DNA of 21,555 bases. Origin: a virus. The stretch covers positions 1 through 21,555 of IMG/VR virus record IMGVR_UViG_3300031746_000197; one strand, 5' to 3'. This document shows, in pieces, positions 8,016 to 21,555 of this stretch (its first letter is position 1; every line of letters starts with the position of its first letter). Both the position numbers and the translations under genes were made by a program. Under the pieces are notes generated by a model that had not been told where the DNA came from, searched no databases, and saw nothing but the letters and a program-made list of their open reading frames with translations.

Positions 8016-8503
8016 GCGCCATCACCGTCGAAATCGAGGGCCTGGACAAGCTCGTTAAGAAGCTCGGCCACGTCACCGACCCGATGGGTGATCTGGTGAA
8101 AGAGGCCGGCGAGTTCGCCAAGAAGAAGGTGCGGGAGTACGCCAAGCCGCACCCCGTCGACAAAGGCACGCTGGCCGCCGGTATGGGAATGGAGTTGACG
8201 GGCAAGGGCGTGGCCATGCGGGCGCTGATCAGCCCCGCGCACGCCATCTGGGGTATTGCCCAGACCGTCGAGGAGGGCCGACGTGCCGGCAAGCCGCCGC
8301 CCATCAAGTCGATCGAGCGCTGGGGCGTAGCGCACGGTTTCATCAACAAGGGCGAGGGCTACAAGCTGCAGATCGAGATAGCGGCCCACGGCACCAAGGG
8401 CGTCAAGATGTTCGAGCGGGCGGCGAAGGACACCGACAAGGCCCTGCCCAAGATGGTCGAAGAATCGAAGAAGCGGGTTGAGGCCGCTTGGGGGGTCAAG
8501 TGA
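8012..8503 (+). CDS. HK97 gp10-like neck / tail completion protein
   Basis: A 163-aa protein that starts at the ATGA overlap with the connector. The N-terminal pattern ITVEIEGLDKLVKKLGHV, followed by a helix with AGEFAKKKVREYAKPHPVDKGTLAAGM, is the signature of the HK97 gp10-like family, which joins the neck to the tail or completes the tail top. The central strands (AMRALISPAHAIW) and the C-terminal amphipathic helix (KMFERAAKDTDKALPKMVEE) also fit. The length is normal. It ends in TGATG, which overlaps the start of a 37-aa zinc-ribbon-like microprotein by one base. Confidence 0.82.
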   Translation: MSAITVEIEGLDKLVKKLGHVTDPMGDLVKEAGEFAKKKVREYAKPHPVDKGTLAAGMGMELTGKGVAMRALISPAHAIWGIAQTVEEGRRAGKPPPIKSIERWGVAHGFINKGEGYKLQIEIAAHGTKGVKMFERAAKDTDKALPKMVEESKKRVEAAWGVK

Positions 8504-8616
8504 TGGGTGTGATAGTCGAGGCGGGCTTCTGCGCGAAATGCGGGAAGCCGCTCGACGATCACGTCGGTTGGCTGACAAAGGAAGGGCCGCGCTGTCCGAA
8601 GGCGAAGGGGAAGTGA
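8503..8616 (+). CDS. 37-aa zinc-ribbon-like microprotein
   Basis: ATG 8503 overlaps the stop of the gp10-like gene (TGATG), and TGA 8614-8616 overlaps the start of the next ORF in the same way. The 37-residue product has C10, C13, H20 and C31 (FCAKCGKPLDDH then PRCP), a spacing suited to one small zinc knuckle, and a basic C-terminus (PKAKGK). The GGAGG-like context before it is weak, so coupling to the upstream gene is likely. Such tiny CxxC proteins are known in phage genomes, but I know of no defined role in the neck module. Function is unknown; nucleic-acid or protein binding is a guess. Confidence 0.6.
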   Translation: MGVIVEAGFCAKCGKPLDDHVGWLTKEGPRCPKAKGK

Positions 8617-10920: not shown

Positions 10921-11340
10921 GTGGGGCACTTCGTTGCCCAGGACGACCTGCACCGGATCGATCTCGGAGACGGCGAGTGGGTCGACATCAAGCGGGAGTT
11001 CGACACCGACGACTGGATTCGCGTCGAGGGCATGATCAGCGGCCTCGTTGACGAGACCACTGGTCAACTGAGGACCGGCGTCCTCTTTCGGAACGCCAAG
11101 GCCCTACTGTCCATTGCCATCAAGGCCTGGAACCTACTCGGGGCGGACGGTCAGGCCGTACCCCTTAGCGAGGAAAGTATCGGGCGACTGAACCGGGAGA
11201 CGCTGCTCAAGATCTCGGGCGCTGTCAACGAACTCAACCCGCTTCGGACGGAGACGGAACGAAAAGAATCCGCGCCCGCCTCTACTCGGCGTTCGAGAAG
11301 GGCGGGCGCTTCCCGAAAGAGCTTGACCGTCGTGCCGTAG
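10921..11340 (+). CDS. Tail assembly chaperone, short (G-type) product
   Basis: A 139-aa protein read from GTG 10921 behind TAGGAGGTG. Residues 1-115 look like a tail assembly chaperone: an N-terminal DLGDGEWVDIKREFDTDDW motif, then helices RNAKALLSIAIKAWNL and RETLLKISGAVNELNPL. After about residue 115 the zero frame turns into low-complexity Ser/Arg/Ala (STRRSRRAGASRK), which looks like a coding frame read out of register. Real coding signal continues in the -1 frame (see the GT entry). In lambda-like phages the short form helps load the tape measure during tail assembly. Confidence 0.82.
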   Translation: MGHFVAQDDLHRIDLGDGEWVDIKREFDTDDWIRVEGMISGLVDETTGQLRTGVLFRNAKALLSIAIKAWNLLGADGQAVPLSEESIGRLNRETLLKISGAVNELNPLRTETERKESAPASTRRSRRAGASRKSLTVVP

Positions 11341-11465
11341 CGATGGAGATCACGGGCTTCTGCTGGTGCCACCTGGGGCATCTGCCGGGGCGCGTGTTCG
11401 AGGACCTGATGCTGATCCACGAGGCGAAGGCGGAAGTCCAGAAGCACCAGCGGAAGGGCGGCTAG
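10921..11465 (+). CDS. Tail assembly chaperone, frameshifted (GT-type) product
   Basis: The -1 frame is open from 11169 to the stop at 11463-11465 and carries a coherent, non-repetitive segment: RARLYSAFEKGGRFPKELDRRA..., ITGFCWCHLGHLPGRVFEDL and a charged end. There is no separate start with a good RBS near its beginning; ATG 11343 gives only 40 aa. A slip at 11262-11265 (AAA on AAAA) would join 115 residues of G to 66 residues of T, a 181-aa fusion. This is the arrangement of the conserved G/GT pair just before the tape measure gene. The fusion itself is inferred; the open frame and downstream hairpin are seen. Confidence 0.78.
11262..11309 (+). promoter_or_regulatory. Probable -1 ribosomal frameshift site with stimulatory hairpin
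   Basis: In the G frame the codons are CGA AAA GAA, so tRNA-Lys on AAA (11263-11265) can re-pair perfectly with AAA one base back (11262-11264). The A-site re-pairing is poor, so this is not a canonical XXXYYYZ heptamer. Downstream, GCGCCCGCC (11272-11280) pairs perfectly with GGCGGGCGC (11301-11309), a 9-bp stem. The stem's 20-base loop holds a further CTCG/CGAG mini-stem. The short spacer (3 bases after GAA) is on the low side. Confidence 0.65.
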
Positions 11466-11614
11466 CGCCCACCGATGATGAAGATGATAAATGCCGCTCC
11501 CGCTATCAGGCCGATGGCGAGATAGGCCATGAAAGTGCCGATGGCGATTCCAAGGCCTAGAGTCACCGCGTCACTGAAGGAGACAAAAAGCCTGTGCGTG
11601 TCATATTCCTTCAT
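11462..11614 (-). CDS. 50-aa membrane protein on the opposite strand
   Basis: This is the only minus-strand gene supported in the window. ATG at 11614-11612 is preceded by a perfect AGGAGGT (11627-11621) with a 6-base spacer. The product is 50 aa: a polar N-terminus (MKEYDTHRLFVSFSD) and then a hydrophobic, Gly/Ala/Ile-rich stretch at residues 17-48 (LGIAIGTFMAYLAIGLIAGA and on to FIIFIIGG), either one long or two short membrane helices. It fills the gap between the tail chaperones and the tape measure. Its stop shares a CTAG with the stop of the GT frame. A lone membrane gene facing against a late operon is typical of a 'moron' expressed from the prophage. HK97 gp15, a small inner-membrane superinfection-exclusion protein, is likewise encoded among the tail genes. 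Function here is inferred. Confidence 0.72.
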   Translation of the reverse strand: MKEYDTHRLFVSFSDAVTLGLGIAIGTFMAYLAIGLIAGAAFIIFIIGGR

Positions 11615-11620
11615 CACCGC

Positions 11621-11627
11621 ACCTCCT
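11621..11627 (-). promoter_or_regulatory. Ribosome binding site of the minus-strand membrane gene
   Basis: The + strand ACCTCCT reads AGGAGGT on the minus strand, 6 bases before the ATG. A weak TAnnnT-type -10 candidate (TAGGCT, minus strand, 11639-11634) lies just upstream, but no clear -35 was found. Confidence 0.65.
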
Positions 11628-11667
11628 GTACCAAGCCTACCACAGGGACGGTTGTTTGAGGTAAATC

Positions 11668-14600
11668 ATGGCCTCTAACGCTGAACTCTCCATCTTGGTT
11701 GCCCTTAAAGACCAGGCTTCAGCCGGCCTCAAAGGCATCTCCAAAGAATCCGGCGGACTCGGCAGCGCCCTAAAGACGCTGGCCGTTGCCGCCGTCGCTG
11801 CTGTTGGGGCCTTTGCCACTTTCAAGACGCTTGAATCTATCGTTTCCACTACGCAGGATCTCGGGGCATCGGTCAACAAGCTCAAGCGGGAGATCGGCGG
11901 GACCGCCGAAGACTCCTCCAAGCTCCTCTTCGCCTTCCAGCACCTCGGCCTTTCTGGCGACGACGCCAGCGCGTCACTCGGTATCCTCGCCAAGAAACTG
12001 AAGGGCGTCTCAGACGAAGAGACGGGCGTCACCACGGGCGGCAAGACCACGGGGGATATCCTTGCGGACCTCGGCGTCAAAGCATTCACCGCAACCGGTG
12101 AACTGGCGTCGATGGGGCAGATCATGCCCCAGATCGCCGACATCTTTAAGAACATGCCCGATGGCGTTGAGAAGACCGGCCTCGCCATGCAACTCTTCGG
12201 GCGGTCGGGCAAGGACATGATCCCTGTCCTGAACAAGGGCGCGGAAGGGCTGCACGACCTGGGCGTGGAGGCTGAGAAGTTCGGCTTGGTCCTGAGTGAA
12301 CAGTCACTTCAGGACGTCAAGGATTACACCGCCGCGCAACGCGACCTGGGGGCGGGGTTTGAGGGAATCAAAGTCCAGCTCGGGCTCGCGGTCATGCCCG
12401 CCCTCACCGATCTGACGGCCTTGTTCGCTAGTTCGCTCCCTACTATCCGAGCGTGGATGGAAGAAGGCATCGGGAAGATCGGGGCCTATCTGGCGGAGCA
12501 CGAGGAGGATATCAGGAACTTCGGCCAAGGCGTGCTCGACCTTGCGGAGAACGGCTTCCAACGTCTCACTGAAGTTGCCCCGCCTCTTTTGACCGTTCTG
12601 GGTGACCTTGCCGCCATGTTCGCGGATGTGGCGTCTAACCTTGTCCCCTTACTCGCCAGTTCGCTAACTACGGTGGCTGGTCTTCTCCAAGATCATCCCG
12701 CCCTCGTCTATGCCATCATCGCCGCCTATGCGGCTTTTCAGGTAGGTAGCTTCGTTCAGGACTTGGCAAGCATCGTGGCTGGTCTCTTTGGCGTGGCAGG
12801 GGCGGCTGGCGTTGCAACGGGCAGCCTCATGACCCTCAAGGCTGCCCTCATCACCACCGGCATCGGCGCCCTCATCGTTGGGCTCGCGACGGCGGCCTAC
12901 CTTGTCTATACAAACTGGAGCACTATCTGGCCTGAACTAGCCGGGTTCATAGAAGCCTGGTACGCCAGAATTGCCCCCATCATCAACGCGGCCATTTCGG
13001 TCATCAACGCGCTGGGCTTCAGTATCGACAGCCTGCCTTCGTCGATAGACATAGATGATTCAGGTGTCGAGGACATAGGCATCCGGTTTGAAACGGCTGC
13101 TGGTCATGCTGCCCGCCTCGCCGCAGAAGCTGGACTCGCTGGAGACGTTGCGCTTCTGCTTAACAGGGGGTTGAACGCAACAGCGGCATCGGCTCAAAAA
13201 GCAGTCGCGCCATTTCACGATCTCGGCTCTGGCCTTGGCGGGCTCACTTCCGGCGCCGGCGGCGCGGCCGAAGCCTTCCGTGGTCTGGACGACGACCTCG
13301 CCGCCCTGCGCCGGCAGATGCGCGACACCGCTACGGCGGGGCTGGCGGTGCTTAACGCCGAGATCGCCAATGAGGAAGGTTACCTCACGAGCCTGAAGGG
13401 CTACCTGGAAGACGCCCAGGCCGCCCACGCCGATCTCGAAGAGCAGATTCGCACCTCCACCGATGCTATGACCGAATGGGAGAACGCCGCCCTACGCGGC
13501 ACGCGGGCCTTCTCAGACGCTTCGCACGGGCTTTCCCAGGAGCAGGATGCGCTCCAACTGAAGATCACGAACATCAAGATAGCCATGATGGATCAGGCCA
13601 AGGAGATGGACAAGACCGGCTACGCGTCCGGCGCGGTGACGGCGATGGTGCAGAAGCTGGCCCAAAGCCTGGGCATCTGGGATCAGGTGAACCGTGGTGG
13701 CCTGCTGACCCAGGAAGAGATCAACCGTGTCCTGGCCGCCGCCGGCGTCGAGATGGACGAGCTGCGGCTGAAGGCGGAGAAGGTTGACCTCACCAAGAAC
13801 CTGACCGTCGGCGATGACCAATACGAACTCGAGAAGTGGTTCGAGGACATGGGCGGCTACGCCGAGTTCACCATGAACCAGATCAAGGCTGGCTGGACCG
13901 GCTCGAGCGAAGAGCTCACCAAGTACCTGACGCTCCTGGCCCGCAACGAGAAGTACATGGAGGATGTGCAAGCAGGAATGACCCTGCACGAGTCCATCCT
14001 CGACAACCTGAAGGCGGCTCAGGACGAACTCACGGCGGCGCTGGAATCGGGCATCAATGAGAAGGTCAAAACCGCCTGGGAAGCGCGAGGCGATATCGTC
14101 GTCAAGTCTATTGACGATGCCTTCGCGGCGATGGATCGGGGTGACAAGGACGCCGCTACCGCCGCCCTCGCTGACGCCCAGGCCCTCTTCGACCGCATCA
14201 AGGCGCTTACGGGCGGTACTGAAACCGGCTTGTTCGCTGGCATCGAAAAGGTGCTCGCTGACGCTCAGGGCAGCATCAACGTGGACATCTCCGGCATGGC
14301 GGACCAGGTGAGCGGCGATCTGGCGAAGGTGGGCGTCACCGTCCAGAAGTCTACGGGCGACATCCTGACCACGCTCACGGGCACCGTCGCCTACTACCTG
14401 GAGGGCATTCAAAACCGTTCCGACATTATGGTCGACAGGCTCGTCGACATTCAGAACGTCCTCGGCTCTGTCCCCGTCGCCCAGCACGGCGGCGCCGTCC
14501 TCTCGGGCGGCCTCGTGCACGTGGAGGCGGGCGAAACGATCATCCCGCCGGGCCGTAGCGGTGGCGTCACCAATAACTATTACACTATCGCCCCCGACTT

Positions 14601-14688
14601 CTCCGGCGCCGTCTTCCTGGGCGACGCGCGCGAGAAGCGGGCCATCGTGGACGCCATCCTGCCCGAGCTGAAGAGGCGGGTCGGCTAA
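11668..14688 (+). CDS. Tape measure protein
   Basis: A 1006-aa protein that sets tail length and is thought to pass into or through the host envelope during DNA ejection. It starts at ATG 11668 after TTGAGGT. The N-terminus (LSILVALKDQASAGLKGISK, hydrophobic LAVAAVAAVGAFATFKTLES near 38-57) and the following charged helices are typical. Residues about 342-450 hold several hydrophobic segments (ALVYAIIAAYAAFQVGSFVQ, AALITTGIGALIVGLATAAY, APIINAAISVINALGF). A helical region follows to about 930, and the C-terminus has the Gly-rich AVLSGGLVHVEAGETIIPPG near 941-962. No peptidase or lysozyme domain was recognised. At about 0.15 nm per residue, the known rule of thumb, the tail would be near 150 nm. 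It overlaps the next gene by one base (TAATG). Confidence 0.94.
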   Translation: MASNAELSILVALKDQASAGLKGISKESGGLGSALKTLAVAAVAAVGAFATFKTLESIVSTTQDLGASVNKLKREIGGTAEDSSKLLFAFQHLGLSGDDASASLGILAKKLKGVSDEETGVTTGGKTTGDILADLGVKAFTATGELASMGQIMPQIADIFKNMPDGVEKTGLAMQLFGRSGKDMIPVLNKGAEGLHDLGVEAEKFGLVLSEQSLQDVKDYTAAQRDLGAGFEGIKVQLGLAVMPALTDLTALFASSLPTIRAWMEEGIGKIGAYLAEHEEDIRNFGQGVLDLAENGFQRLTEVAPPLLTVLGDLAAMFADVASNLVPLLASSLTTVAGLLQDHPALVYAIIAAYAAFQVGSFVQDLASIVAGLFGVAGAAGVATGSLMTLKAALITTGIGALIVGLATAAYLVYTNWSTIWPELAGFIEAWYARIAPIINAAISVINALGFSIDSLPSSIDIDDSGVEDIGIRFETAAGHAARLAAEAGLAGDVALLLNRGLNATAASAQKAVAPFHDLGSGLGGLTSGAGGAAEAFRGLDDDLAALRRQMRDTATAGLAVLNAEIANEEGYLTSLKGYLEDAQAAHADLEEQIRTSTDAMTEWENAALRGTRAFSDASHGLSQEQDALQLKITNIKIAMMDQAKEMDKTGYASGAVTAMVQKLAQSLGIWDQVNRGGLLTQEEINRVLAAAGVEMDELRLKAEKVDLTKNLTVGDDQYELEKWFEDMGGYAEFTMNQIKAGWTGSSEELTKYLTLLARNEKYMEDVQAGMTLHESILDNLKAAQDELTAALESGINEKVKTAWEARGDIVVKSIDDAFAAMDRGDKDAATAALADAQALFDRIKALTGGTETGLFAGIEKVLADAQGSINVDISGMADQVSGDLAKVGVTVQKSTGDILTTLTGTVAYYLEGIQNRSDIMVDRLVDIQNVLGSVPVAQHGGAVLSGGLVHVEAGETIIPPGRSGGVTNNYYTIAPDFSGAVFLGDAREKRAIVDAILPELKRRVG

Positions 14689-16989: not shown

Positions 16990-17026
16990 GGCCCTGCGTA
17001 AGCGGGGCCTTTCCATTTGGAGGAGG
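16990..17026 (+). promoter_or_regulatory. Hairpin plus RBS leader (second copy)
   Basis: GGCCCTGC (16990-16997) pairs with GCGGGGCC (17002-17009) around a GTAA (GNRA-type) tetraloop, including one G-U pair, then TTTCCATTTGGAGGAGG. The layout is the same as the leader at 5182-5214 before the capsid gene: 8-bp stem, 4-base loop, G-U at the sixth pair, TTTCCAT, two bases, GGAGGA. Confidence 0.6.
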
Positions 17027-17031
17027 TTCCG

Positions 17032-17427
17032 ATGGCCGGAAACATAACGGATTTCTTGGAGAACGAGCTGCTGGACCACACGCTCAAGGTGGGCGGTGCC
17101 TATGGGCAGCCCTCCTACTGCAAGCTCGCTCTGTTCACGGCTGACCCGACGGACACCGGCAACGTGGCCGCCGAGGTTAGCGGCGGCGCCTACGCCCGCG
17201 TGAACGTGGTGTTCACGGCGGCGTCGGGTGGCAGCACGAGCAACGACGCCGACGTGACGTTCCCGCAGGCCACGGCGGACTGGGGCACGGTCACGCACAT
17301 CGCGATCATGGACGCCACCACCGGCGGGAACATGCTCTGGCATGGGGCGCTCACGGCATCCAAGACCGTGGCGAGCGGCGACACGTTCAAGATTCCGACG
17401 GGAGACCTTGACATCTCGCTTGCGTGA
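17032..17427 (+). CDS. Small beta-rich tail protein
   Basis: A 131-aa protein. ATG 17032 is chosen over an in-frame start at 17017 because TTGGAGGAGG (17017-17026) is the ribosome site. The pattern is that of a widespread small tail/fibre-associated family: NITDFLENELLDHTLKVG, then LALFTADPTDTGNVAAEVSG, GGAYARVNVVFTA, FPQATADWGTVTHIAIMDA, and a final DTFKIPTGDLDISL. The 'ADWGTVTHxAIMDA' segment is the most recognisable. It has its own hairpin leader, unlike its neighbours, which suggests separate control or high output. A 59-base gap with no visible element besides an RBS follows. Confidence 0.76.
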   Translation: MAGNITDFLENELLDHTLKVGGAYGQPSYCKLALFTADPTDTGNVAAEVSGGAYARVNVVFTAASGGSTSNDADVTFPQATADWGTVTHIAIMDATTGGNMLWHGALTASKTVASGDTFKIPTGDLDISLA

Positions 17428-17486: not shown

Positions 17487-18857
17487 ATGGTGAAGCGGTC
17501 GGTGAAACCGACTGCGGTCCTGGCTGTCTGCATCTACCGCTCCCTCGAAGCGGCGACGATGGTCTGCATCGAGCGGGCGGTGCAGACCGGCCATTACGTC
17601 CTGCTGCGCTACTACAACGACGCGCTGATCTGTCGGGCGCGGTCGATGGCCGCGTCCGACTTTCTGCGCCAGCACAAGAAGCTGGACGTGATGGTGTTCG
17701 TCGACGCGGACATGGTGTTCACGCCCGACGACCTGGAGCGGGTCGTGGCCCTGGCGCGGGAAAAGAAGGCTGTCGCGGGCGGCGGGTATCCCATCCGGAG
17801 AGCCCAGGAGGGATGGCCCGCCGTCCGCTTGCTGGACGGCGACGAGGCCCCGCTGGCGTTCGGCCCTGAGCAGCCGCCGCGGCTGGTGCGTTACGCGGGT
17901 ACTGGCTTTCTGGCCATCCACCGCAAGGCGATCGAGAGGCTGATCCTTGATCAGCCCTTCTGTACCGCCGCCGTGACGACGGGCTTCTGGCCCATCTTTC
18001 AGCCGCTTCCGTTCCAGCACCCCAACGGCGAATGGGAATACTTCGGCGAGGACTGGGCGTTCGGGGAGCGCTGCTACCAGGCCGGGATCGAGTGCTGGAT
18101 GGACATGAGCCTCGACATCGGCCACATGGGCACCTACCAGTACCGCCTCGCCGATGTGGCCCAGCGGCTCGACAACGACGACGAACGCAAGCTCGTGCTG
18201 CGCGACTTGGCCGATTACTGGCAGAAGCCGCTGGCGCAACTGATCCTTGACCTGCAGAACGCGGAGAACCCGAACGACACGATAGCCCAGGAGTGGCGCG
18301 AGCGGAAGCCCGAGACGCCGGAAGAGGTGGATCAGTTCTACCGCGAGCAGCAGGCGTACATCGCTGACCTCGTGCTGTGGAACACCTCGCCTCAGTTCTG
18401 GCACGACGTTACGGTCTTGCTGCGCTGTCGTGGTCGGGTAGCCGACTTCGGCGGCGGGATCGGGAGCCTGGCGCTCTCCCTGGCCCGCCGCGGGGCGAAG
18501 GTGGCCTATGTCGACCTGCCCAGCCCGCAGCGAGACTTCGCCGAGTGGCGGTTCAAGCGGCACGAAGATTGGGCTAAGGGTATCACCGTCCACACGTCCC
18601 TGGAGGAACTGGAGGGGCTAGACGTGATCGTGTCCAATGACACGATGGAGCACCTGCACCCGGACACGCTGCCCATGTTCGCCAAGCAGATGTTTGACGC
18701 GCTGCGGCCGGGCGGCCAGGTGCGGGCGGTAAACAGGTTCGGCGACCACGCGGCGCAACCGATGCACTACAACAGCGGCGAGCAGTACGTGGCGGCGATG
18801 AAGGAGGCCGGGTTTGAGGGCGGGCCTGTGATCTGGGCAAAGCCGGTGAAGGAGTAG
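17487..18857 (+). CDS. Bifunctional glycosyltransferase-methyltransferase
   Basis: A 456-aa two-domain enzyme behind CTAGGAGGAG. Residues about 8-230 are a GT-A glycosyltransferase: NDALICRARSMAASDFL near 44-60, the metal/sugar-nucleotide DxD motif in MVFVDADMVF (D73, D75), AGTGFLAIHRKAIE near 137-150, and the catalytic region GEDWAFGERCYQAGI then LDIGHMGTY near 187-217. Residues about 300-456 are a class I SAM-dependent methyltransferase: VADFGGGIGSLALSLARRG (318-336, the SAM-binding glycine loop), acidic D343 after strand 2, and DVIVSNDTMEHLHPD near 379-393. The linker is charged helix. It is likely to add and methylate a sugar on a phage protein or host glycan; mycobacteriophage virion glycosylation by phage-encoded GT and MTase genes is a known parallel. 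Substrate and target are not visible. An 8-bp inverted repeat lies at 17938-17956. Confidence 0.86.
   Translation: MVKRSVKPTAVLAVCIYRSLEAATMVCIERAVQTGHYVLLRYYNDALICRARSMAASDFLRQHKKLDVMVFVDADMVFTPDDLERVVALAREKKAVAGGGYPIRRAQEGWPAVRLLDGDEAPLAFGPEQPPRLVRYAGTGFLAIHRKAIERLILDQPFCTAAVTTGFWPIFQPLPFQHPNGEWEYFGEDWAFGERCYQAGIECWMDMSLDIGHMGTYQYRLADVAQRLDNDDERKLVLRDLADYWQKPLAQLILDLQNAENPNDTIAQEWRERKPETPEEVDQFYREQQAYIADLVLWNTSPQFWHDVTVLLRCRGRVADFGGGIGSLALSLARRGAKVAYVDLPSPQRDFAEWRFKRHEDWAKGITVHTSLEELEGLDVIVSNDTMEHLHPDTLPMFAKQMFDALRPGGQVRAVNRFGDHAAQPMHYNSGEQYVAAMKEAGFEGGPVIWAKPVKE
17938..17956 (+). repeat. Perfect 8-bp inverted repeat within the glycosyltransferase domain
   Basis: GGCTGATC (17938-17945) and GATCAGCC (17949-17956) are exact reverse complements with a 3-base loop, CTT. 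It is inside coding sequence for residues 151-157. No role is suggested; it may be chance. Confidence 0.4.
18849..18854 (+). promoter_or_regulatory. Ribosome binding site of the long fibre gene
   Basis: AAGGAG lies within the last codons of the glycosyltransferase-methyltransferase gene, 7 bases before TTG 18862. This supports TTG as start and implies coupled translation of enzyme and fibre. Confidence 0.6.
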
Positions 18858-18861
18858 CGTC

Positions 18862-21555
18862 TTGGCCGACTGGACTACCCCGACCGCCATCCACTCCGTC
18901 TGCGGGGAGACTACCACCTATTACGATCACCTCACGATCGACAGTGACACCGCGACCATGTGGGCGCACGTCACGGCCGAGTACCACTGGATCATCTTCG
19001 ACCTCGGCGTCGCGAAGGTCGTATCCAAGGTCCAGCTCTACCAGACGGTGGCGGCAGGCAACCGCTGGGGCGGCACCTCCGGGGCAACTGTTTATGTCAG
19101 CACCTCGGTCGATAGCTGGGGCGATTCTGTCTGGGAAGGGCTTCTCAACGCGGGGTCGGGCTGGCAGGAGTCGGGGGCGTTCTCTAAGACGGGCCGCTAC
19201 GTCAAGATGGTCAGCTTGCGGAGTAGCAACGCTGACCGAATGTGCGAGATGCAGGCGGAATGCACCCTCATTCCGCCGGAGCCCTCTGCGACCCTGTCGG
19301 GCAGCGGCACGCTGACAGCAGCCTGCTATGACCCCGACACGATCCTGCTCACGATGGCGTCTGGGGAGAACACCCCGCACGGCTCTGGCTACGCATCCGG
19401 CGTCGACAAGGCCTACATCTCCACCAAAACGACACCCTACAAGTTGTGTCGGTTTGACCCGACCACGATGGCCTACAGCGTTTACACCGGCGCGGCGGGC
19501 AGGCTGACGGCCCCTGCCCTTGTTGTCGTGGGGAGCACGGTCTACGTGGCGACGGCAGATGCCACGTATAGCTACATAGACCGCTTCGCCACAAGCACCT
19601 CGCCGCCATCCCTGGTCGGCTCTTGGAACCTGGGCGGCTATGGGGCGGGCGAGAGCATCGACAGCGACGGCACCTACCTGTATGTCGGGACCCCCACTAG
19701 ATATGTGCTGAAGGTGCGGATCAGCGATGGGGTGGTGACTGCCTCGCGACTGTTGACCAACCTGGGCGACAACTACATCCATGCGCTGCGCTACGATGCC
19801 GAAACTGGGAAGGTCTTCTGTACCACCATCAACGGGTACATCTACCGTCTCGCCGCTTCGGATTTGGCGGAGGAAGATTACGAAGCGACAGCAGCGCCCA
19901 CGCTCTCCGACGATATTGCCCTCTCCACCGGGTACATCTGGCTGCCCCCTGAAGCCGGGTATATAGCTGGTCGCAGCGGCTGGGTGATCAAGGTTTCGAA
20001 GACCGACCTGGCGGCTCAGACCCTCATGACCGTCGGGCCGAGCAACGCCACCTCTCTTGGGTGCTTCGAAGACCCAGGCGGAACCTACATCTGGGTGGCG
20101 TGGAGTGCCTCAAATCCGGTCAAGATTTCGCGCGTGAAGATCTCGGATGGCACGGTGGTGGTCTACTCCGTGGCGGGCGTGACCGTCCCGTACGCATCCG
20201 AAATCATCTTCGCGCCGGATGCAGACAAGCTGGTCGTCTCCCTCTATGGCGTCTCTCCCTTCCAGGTCTACAGATTCAACGACCTGGCGGTTCACTGGCC
20301 GGGCGTTCCAACCGTCTACGGCGCTGCTTCCCTATCCGGGAGCGGGACCGTTGTGGCGGCCGGTGACGTGGGGCTCACTGTGCAGGTTGCCGCCGCCGTG
20401 GATGACGGCGAGCTGTTCCCTATGGGTGGAACCTGGACGAACTCCACCACCTACATGGACATCGGGCGTAAGGATGTCCTTCCGCCTAACGGGGCTTGGA
20501 AGGACATCTTTGGCTGGTGGCGCTGGGCGGCCGTCAACGTCCCGCAGGGCGCGAACGTGACGGCGGCGAAGATACAGTTCAAGGCCCAATACACGGAGTC
20601 GACCGCTGTCGATCTGCGAGTCGAGGGCTGCGCGGAAGACGACTCCGATGCCCTCGCCTCCTACGTGGATTACGTCTCACGCCCCAAGCTACCCCTGGTC
20701 AACTGGAACGGCGTTGAGGGCTGGACGGCGGACGCCTGGCATTGGTCGACCGACATCTCGGCTATCGTCCAGGCGCTCGTCAACCGTCAGGGATGGGCGT
20801 CCGGCCAGGCGATGCAGGTCATCGTCAAGGGTATCGAGAGCGGCGTCTGGGCCGAGCGTCGGGCATACGCCTACGACACAGACCCGCTCTACGCCGCGAA
20901 GCTGAACGTCGAATGGTCTGGGGTATCGGAGGTAGGCGCCGCCGCCATCTCGGGCTCGGGGACGCTGACCGCCTCGGCGACCGTCACGAAGGTTGCCGCA
21001 GCGTCGCTGTCGGGCTCGGGCACAGTGACAGCAGTCGGCGCGAAGGCACACTTCGGCCAGGCCGCTCTGTCCGGCAGCGGCACGGCGACAGCAGCCGGAG
21101 CCCGTGTCCTTCGGGGCATCGCGGCCCTGGCCGGTTCGGGCGTCGCGAGCGCAGTCGCTGCGCTTGTCCTCACGGGTGCTGCCGTCCTGAGCGGGTCGGG
21201 CTCCGCGTCAGCAGTAGGCGGCGTCCAACGACCGGCGGCTGCGGGCCTGTCCGGGTCGGGCACTCTGGTGGCTACCGCTAGTGCCACGTCAGCCCATGCC
21301 GGTGCTGCCTCGCTTAGTGGGAGGGGCGTGGTCGGCCAAAGAATCAAGTATGGTAGCGGGCTCCTCTGGGGTGATGGCTGGGTTTGGGGGCGTGGCTACG
21401 TCGACGCGTCCGTCACGCGGGCTGGACAAGCCGCCCTCAGCGCCTCCGGGACGCTGGAAGCGCTCGGTGCGGTTGGCGGTGAAGCGCTCGGGAGAGCCGA
21501 CCTCAGTGGGGCTGGCACGCTCACGGCCCAAGGCACGCAAATCCACCGGGCCACC
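18862..21555 (+). CDS. Long multidomain tail fibre / receptor-binding protein (3' end beyond window)
   Basis: The frame is open for 898 codons from TTG 18862 to the window edge without a stop, so the gene is truncated by the window. Domains by residue: about 1-135 a discoidin (F5/8 type C)-like jelly roll (YHWIIFDLGVAKVVSKVQLY, GRYVKMVSLRSSN); 143-154 a first ALSGSGT-type linker; about 160-485 a beta-propeller-like region with repeated short strands (GTYLYVGTPTRYVLKVRISD, GKVFCTTINGYIYRL); 487-500 a second linker; about 514-691 a DNRLRE-like beta domain (WRWAAVNVPQGANVTAAKIQ, STDISAIVQALVNRQGWASG); and from 692 a run of roughly 20-residue Ser/Gly/Ala/Thr repeats. One repeat is interrupted by a Trp/Gly-rich stretch (LLWGDGWVWGRGY). 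It is likely the host-binding appendage and a candidate target of the enzyme encoded just upstream. Confidence 0.85.
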   Translation, partial: MADWTTPTAIHSVCGETTTYYDHLTIDSDTATMWAHVTAEYHWIIFDLGVAKVVSKVQLYQTVAAGNRWGGTSGATVYVSTSVDSWGDSVWEGLLNAGSGWQESGAFSKTGRYVKMVSLRSSNADRMCEMQAECTLIPPEPSATLSGSGTLTAACYDPDTILLTMASGENTPHGSGYASGVDKAYISTKTTPYKLCRFDPTTMAYSVYTGAAGRLTAPALVVVGSTVYVATADATYSYIDRFATSTSPPSLVGSWNLGGYGAGESIDSDGTYLYVGTPTRYVLKVRISDGVVTASRLLTNLGDNYIHALRYDAETGKVFCTTINGYIYRLAASDLAEEDYEATAAPTLSDDIALSTGYIWLPPEAGYIAGRSGWVIKVSKTDLAAQTLMTVGPSNATSLGCFEDPGGTYIWVAWSASNPVKISRVKISDGTVVVYSVAGVTVPYASEIIFAPDADKLVVSLYGVSPFQVYRFNDLAVHWPGVPTVYGAASLSGSGTVVAAGDVGLTVQVAAAVDDGELFPMGGTWTNSTTYMDIGRKDVLPPNGAWKDIFGWWRWAAVNVPQGANVTAAKIQFKAQYTESTAVDLRVEGCAEDDSDALASYVDYVSRPKLPLVNWNGVEGWTADAWHWSTDISAIVQALVNRQGWASGQAMQVIVKGIESGVWAERRAYAYDTDPLYAAKLNVEWSGVSEVGAAAISGSGTLTASATVTKVAAASLSGSGTVTAVGAKAHFGQAALSGSGTATAAGARVLRGIAALAGSGVASAVAALVLTGAAVLSGSGSASAVGGVQRPAAAGLSGSGTLVATASATSAHAGAASLSGRGVVGQRIKYGSGLLWGDGWVWGRGYVDASVTRAGQAALSASGTLEALGAVGGEALGRADLSGAGTLTAQGTQIHRAT
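20935..21555 (+). repeat. Tandem 60-bp-period coding repeats (LSGSGT array)
   Basis: About nine degenerate copies of a roughly 20-codon unit with core LSGSGT(L/V)TA follow one another, starting near 20935, 20998, 21061, 21121, 21181, 21238, 21304, 21430 and 21496. Two single copies lie earlier at 19288-19323 and 20320-20361, between the larger domains. Most neighbouring copies are spaced very close to 60 bases. The array continues past the window end. Confidence 0.85.

What the first reader, a model, noticed from the sequence alone, without database searches (positions are those of the whole stretch)
11462..11627. Hidden minus-strand gene for a 50-aa membrane protein inside the tail operon
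Seen: a perfect AGGAGGT, 6-base spacer, ATG and a 50-codon frame with a 32-residue hydrophobic block fill the gap between the tail chaperones and the tape measure on the opposite strand. It is too short for usual ORF cut-offs. Known: HK97 gp15 is a small inner-membrane superinfection-exclusion moron encoded among the tail genes. Inference: this is a moron, expressed from the prophage or antisense to the late transcript, that may block DNA entry of related phages or act with the tape measure.
Basis: partly seen in the sequence, partly recalled or inferred. Interest (0 to 1): 0.75.

Follow-up and report, generated by a model that had tools for sequence, protein, structure and literature searches.

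The report
Reverse-strand accessory gene in tail operon
The tiny backward gene is almost certainly real: related viruses carry different backward single genes at the same spot between two tail genes, so this is a docking site for optional "cargo" genes, and this cargo encodes a very small membrane protein that may protect the infected cell from other viruses.

Summary
In detail: AGGAGGT, 6 bases, ATG, 50 codons and one long hydrophobic helix on the minus strand, filling the gap between the frameshifted tail chaperones and the tape measure. Literal conservation of the frame fails, since no homologue was found. Related tail modules explain why. In all four other gap-bearing relatives the same gap holds a minus-strand small ORF: a 63-aa membrane protein (L002), two DUF4177-like proteins (L082, L109) and a PH-like protein (L111). 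A fifth relative, L108, keeps only the last codons of the L111-type gene, a probable decayed copy. Flanking genes stay alike while the cargo is swapped, so this is a "reverse moron" site at the position of HK97 gp15, but inverted. A minus-strand promoter is strong in L111, plausible in L082 and L109, weak in the window; no terminator was found. That the protein blocks DNA entry of other phages is inference from position, membrane nature and precedent (about 35%). Reverse-oriented cargo in late operons is known (HK97 gp23, phi80 taiEcA, Cluster O mycobacteriophages). Hence: a new member of a known kind, with a well-documented and diverse hotspot.

The parts
11462..11614 (-). reverse moron: 50-aa predicted single-helix membrane protein (ATG 11614, stop TAG 11464-11462)
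11621..11627 (-). AGGAGGT ribosome binding site, 6 bases before the ATG
11634..11665 (-). candidate promoter TTTACC-20-TAGGCT (weak; same -10-like hexamer and 20-base spacing as in L109, which has TTGACA)
   Evidence: not reported by the sigma-70 scan
10921..11340 (+). tail assembly chaperone, first product (flank)
   Evidence: synteny and homology to L082, L002, L108, L109, L111
11298..11465 (+). tail assembly chaperone -1 frameshift extension (flank); its stop shares CTAG with the minus gene's stop
   Evidence: 63% identical to L082 counterpart; weak PHROG tail assembly chaperone hit
11668..14688 (+). tail tape measure protein (flank)
   Evidence: PHROGs tape measure families, best such E 1.2e-22

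Best explanation
The ORF is a real accessory gene (a moron) sitting in reverse orientation at a site, between the tail chaperones and the tape measure, where this phage lineage swaps single minus-strand genes. It encodes a 50-aa single-pass inner-membrane protein. Shown: the ORF, its ribosome site, and the repeated use of the same gap by unrelated minus-strand genes in relatives, with one probable decayed copy. Inferred: transcription from a promoter in the ~53 bp between the gene and the tape measure while the late tail operon is silent (prophage or early infection), and shut-off by opposing late transcription. Inferred, about 35%: the protein sits in the inner membrane and hinders genome entry of related long-tailed phages, as HK97 gp15 does. 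The confidence given is for the reverse-moron part.
For: Same-gap minus ORFs: L002 11013-11204 (63 aa, C-terminal membrane stretch, AGGAGGT) and L082 10263-10442 (59 aa); L109 (66 aa) and L111 (91 aa). L082 protein passes the DUF4177 cut-off (26.0 vs 25 bits); L109 protein hits the same family weakly and is 21/53 identical to L082's (z 5.4). L111 protein is predicted as seven strands plus a helix, and its best fold matches are mostly PH domains, though the model is moderate (pLDDT 69). L108 lacks a full gene but keeps 21/32 identical bases in register after the chaperone stop (best of 4,027 other offsets is 17) and the frame AAVRALREAVAAG* against TAVGALREAIAAP*. Cargo changes faster than backbone: L109/L108 chaperones 88% identical, cargo different. 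Promoter-like hexamers on the minus strand: L111 TTGACA-17-TAGCAT, L082 TCCACA-17-TATGAT, L109 TTGACA-20-TAGGCT. L108's contig carries a tyrosine integrase. Codon-position GC of the ORF follows the coding order 3>1>2.
Against: The 50-aa protein itself has no homologue, so its own reading frame cannot be tested by substitution pattern. The window's promoter is weak and no minus-strand terminator was found. The window is a 21.5-kb fragment in which no integrase or repressor was found, so lysogeny of this phage is not shown. No exclusion phenotype can be computed. Cargo in relatives is not always a membrane protein, so one shared mechanism for the site is unlikely. More distant tail modules have no gap at all.
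Confidence: 0.8

Rival explanations
1. Chance ORF in a non-coding spacer.
For: Minus ORFs of 50 aa or more arise in 22% of shuffles; no homologue of the protein.
Against: Ribosome site of that strength plus length in 38/20,000 shuffles, none with a membrane stretch; every gap-bearing relative has a minus ORF in the gap, one a Pfam family member.
Confidence: 0.07
2. A lytic-phase protein (holin-like lysis helper or membrane partner of the phage's own tape measure) rather than prophage cargo.
For: Small one-helix membrane protein next to the tape measure; L002 also has a membrane protein there.
Against: It is antisense to the late operon, and relatives have DUF4177- or PH-like proteins or almost nothing at the site, so no essential tail or lysis role.
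Confidence: 0.1
3. Prophage cargo with a function other than entry exclusion, for example changing a host membrane process or blocking tail assembly of other phages as Tab and Tai do. (This rivals only the inferred function, not the reverse-moron reading.)
For: Cargo at the site is heterogeneous; Tab and Tai are moron-encoded and target the tape measure or tail assembly (PMC10884400; PMC11364771).
Against: A nearly all-membrane protein has little surface to bind a cytoplasmic tail protein; HK97 gp15, at the same site, acts on entry (PMC10883804).
Confidence: 0.4

Closest known systems
HK97 gp15 moron (superinfection exclusion protein)
   Same: Same gap between frameshifted tail chaperones and tape measure; small protein with one strongly hydrophobic segment; literature: predicted inner-membrane, blocks DNA injection, escaped by tail tube/tape measure swap (PMC10883804).
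   Different: Opposite orientation; no sequence similarity; hydrophobic part at the N-terminus in gp15, at the C-terminus here; gp15 has an annotated terminator, none found here.
HK97 gp23 'reverse moron'
   Same: Single small gene on the reverse strand inside the tail operon, annotated as reverse moron product.
   Different: Different site (before gene J) and an annotated terminator; sequences not compared.
phi80 taiEcA / noncontiguous operon
   Same: Defence gene reversed inside the late operon, expressed in the lysogen and reduced when the late operon is switched on by Q (PMC11364771).
   Different: Located near the packaging module in most phages; comes with a counter-defence gene; target is tail assembly; none of that shown here.
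Leftward genes in the structural operon of Cluster O mycobacteriophages
   Same: Small reverse genes interrupting a late operon, one with its own SigA-like promoter; an HNH gene inserted between chaperone and tape measure in some (PMC4351075).
   Different: The leftward gene named there (Corndog 53) was not shown to lie in this gap; no relation in sequence tested.

Membership tests
Phage moron | Extra gene, absent or replaced in relatives with the same flanking genes | tested here: met
   Different cargo in L002, L082, L109, L111; decayed in L108; no gap in more distant relatives
Phage moron | Own promoter | tested here: inconclusive
   Good -35/-10 in L111, fair in L082, -35 perfect with long spacing in L109; weak in L002 and the window
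Phage moron | Own terminator (usual, not present in all morons) | tested here: inconclusive
   No minus-strand terminator-like site in the window, L002 or L082 regions; a simple consensus scan only, so absence is not shown
Phage moron | Base composition differing from flanks | tested here: met
   Gap G+C 54%; ORF third-position G+C 0.68 against 0.77-0.88 in flanking genes; modest
Phage moron | Expressed in the lysogen while late genes are off | not testable with these tools
   No transcript data; one relative (L108 contig) has an integrase
HK97 gp15 exclusion protein | Position between tail chaperone and tape measure | tested here: met
HK97 gp15 exclusion protein | Sequence homology | tested here: not met
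   No BLASTP alignment
HK97 gp15 exclusion protein | Same orientation as tail genes | tested here: not met
   gp15 + strand; this ORF - strand
HK97 gp15 exclusion protein | Small inner-membrane protein | tested here: met
   By prediction only: hydropathy 2.58, one helix 3-48, pLDDT 89
HK97 gp15 exclusion protein | Blocks DNA injection of related phages | not testable with these tools
   needs an infection assay
Noncontiguous operon with defence gene (Tai type) | Defence gene reversed within the late operon | tested here: inconclusive
   Reversed within the late operon: yes; that it is a defence gene: unknown
Noncontiguous operon with defence gene (Tai type) | Linked counter-defence gene | not tested
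   No candidate sought; flanking genes have tail annotations or synteny

The most novel reading that the evidence does not exclude
This phage lineage keeps a dedicated docking site for single reverse-oriented defence genes at the chaperone/tape-measure junction, filled in turn by membrane, DUF4177-like and PH-like proteins, with late antisense transcription silencing the cargo during lytic growth; DUF4177-like and PH-like cargo would then be unrecognised anti-phage proteins.
Probability: 0.25. Interest if true: 0.6.

Novelty: new member of a known kind. Interest (0 to 1): 0.38.

Why it matters
Small reverse genes inside tail operons fall below annotation cut-offs and yet mark where prophages carry cargo. 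A site identified by position alone, with several unrelated kinds of cargo in five genomes, gives a way to collect candidate exclusion or host-modifying proteins from uncultivated phages.

Tried and rejected
Homologues of the 50-aa protein: none by tblastn in phages, back-translation scan of viral contigs, Pfam, PHROGs, NCBIfam, PADLOC; DUF7304 (E 0.13), NDUF_B12 and a PADLOC Lon-protease model (E 0.046) were judged chance. Homology of the window and L002 membrane proteins: not shown (BLASTP none; z 1.7). Relatives through the capsid mostly have an unrelated tail block without the gap. Host through genome contigs: no relative found. S-LBS1, a tape-measure relative, has an annotated minus ORF (A19) before its tape measure, but the plus strand there appears to read through as the chaperone extension, so I do not count it. 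PFR1 has no gap gene. RNA families: only chance matches far below cut-off. A local DNA alignment of the L108 remnant with L111 was not above shuffles (19 vs maximum 23); the in-register test is what supports it.

Full report
What is there. The window is a 21,555-base virus record with the order terminase, portal, protease/MCP, connectors, major tail protein, tail chaperones, tape measure, tip and fibres (some by synteny). On the minus strand at 11462-11614 lies a 50-codon ORF with AGGAGGT six bases before its ATG. Its stop codon shares CTAG with the stop of the frameshifted chaperone, and 53 bp separate its start from the tape-measure start.

Is it more than chance? Length alone is not: 22% of dinucleotide shuffles hold a minus ORF of 50 aa or more. 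A ribosome site of 6 nt or more with that length occurs in 38 of 20,000, and with a membrane-like stretch in none. In 356 kb of related structural DNA there are 27 minus-strand ORFs of this class, four of them in the gap discussed here. The ORF's codon-position G+C (0.52, 0.42, 0.68) follows the coding order of the genome. The model is a single helix over residues 3-48 (pLDDT 89, from one sequence).

What relatives show. No homologue of the protein itself was found. Relatives of the tail block were found through the capsid (L002), the major tail protein (L082) and a DNA pattern for the chaperone motif DLGDGEWV (L108, L109, L111). Each gap-bearing relative has a minus-strand ORF in the same gap. 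L002 has a 63-aa protein with a C-terminal membrane stretch behind AGGAGGT and a TTG start. L082 has a 59-aa protein that passes the Pfam cut-off for DUF4177; its ribosome site is weaker than the others. L109 has a 66-aa DUF4177-like protein, 21/53 identical to L082's. L111 has a 91-aa protein whose moderate-confidence model matches PH domains best. In the window, L082 and L111 the minus stop overlaps the chaperone stop; in L002 it lies 38 bases inside the chaperone and in L109 a few bases beyond it. L108 has only a ~60-bp gap, which reads in register as the last codons of the L111-type gene (21/32 bases identical, best other offset 17 of 32 among 4,027); I read it as a decayed copy. More distant tail blocks have chaperone and tape measure nearly abutting.

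Turnover. L109 and L108 chaperones are 88% identical, yet their cargo differs; L082 and L109 are distant (40%) yet share DUF4177-like cargo. The window's chaperone extension is nearest L082 (63%) but its tape-measure N-terminus is nearest L109 (58% against 35% to L082), so recombination has passed between the two flanking genes, that is, at or near this gap.

Expression. On the minus strand in front of the cargo genes, L111 has TTGACA-17-TAGCAT, L082 TCCACA-17-TATGAT (also found by the scan), L109 TTGACA-20-TAGGCT, L002 only a TATCAT, the window TTTACC-20-TAGGCT. These are suggestive, strong only in L111. No minus terminator was seen. The L108 contig has a tyrosine integrase, so the lineage includes temperate members; for the window itself this is unknown.

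How it most likely works. Shown: a reverse-oriented, exchangeable single gene. Inferred: it is read when the late operon is silent and opposed by late transcription, as reported for phi80 taiEcA, where the gene is reversed in the late operon, made in the lysogen and reduced when Q is expressed (PMC11364771). Inferred at about 35%: the protein hinders genome entry. [quoted passage not shown] Position next to the tape measure is not by itself evidence of contact with it.

Known or new. Morons between tail genes, reverse morons (HK97 gp23), and small reverse genes with their own promoter in a structural operon (Cluster O mycobacteriophages, PMC4351075) are known. What this adds is a documented site in uncultivated phages where several unrelated kinds of reverse cargo alternate. 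I found no earlier description of this site in the papers searched, but that library is partial. It is not a gp15 family member: homology and orientation were tested and not met.

Noticed in passing
window 11240-11300: Probable -1 frameshift site of the tail chaperones (CGA AAA GAA); the L082 counterpart has the classical A AAA AAA run (about L082 10067-10076). Extension conserved at 63%.
   Followed up: partly
window 11298-11668 against L082 and L109: Chaperone extension closest to L082, tape-measure N-terminus closest to L109: a recombination switch at or near the cargo gap.
   Followed up: partly
window 17487-18857: One protein with an N-terminal glycosyltransferase-2-like part and a C-terminal methyltransferase domain inside the fibre region.
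   Followed up: no
window 18862-21555: Long fibre-like ORF, open at the contig end, with an F5/8 type C domain and many repeats of ALSGSGT.
   Followed up: no
window 17017-17427: Strong match (155 bits) to Pfam Gp80, a podophage GP4 fibre protein, in a phage with a tape measure.
   Followed up: no
window 8488-8616: Small plus-strand ORF, 42 aa, CxxC...C pattern (possible zinc ribbon) in the gap before 8704; no Pfam match.
   Followed up: no
L111 3136-3411 (+ of the stored locus, antisense to the tail genes): Cargo protein with PH-domain-like predicted fold (pLDDT 69); fold hits also include phage proteins annotated as bacterial PH domain.
   Followed up: partly
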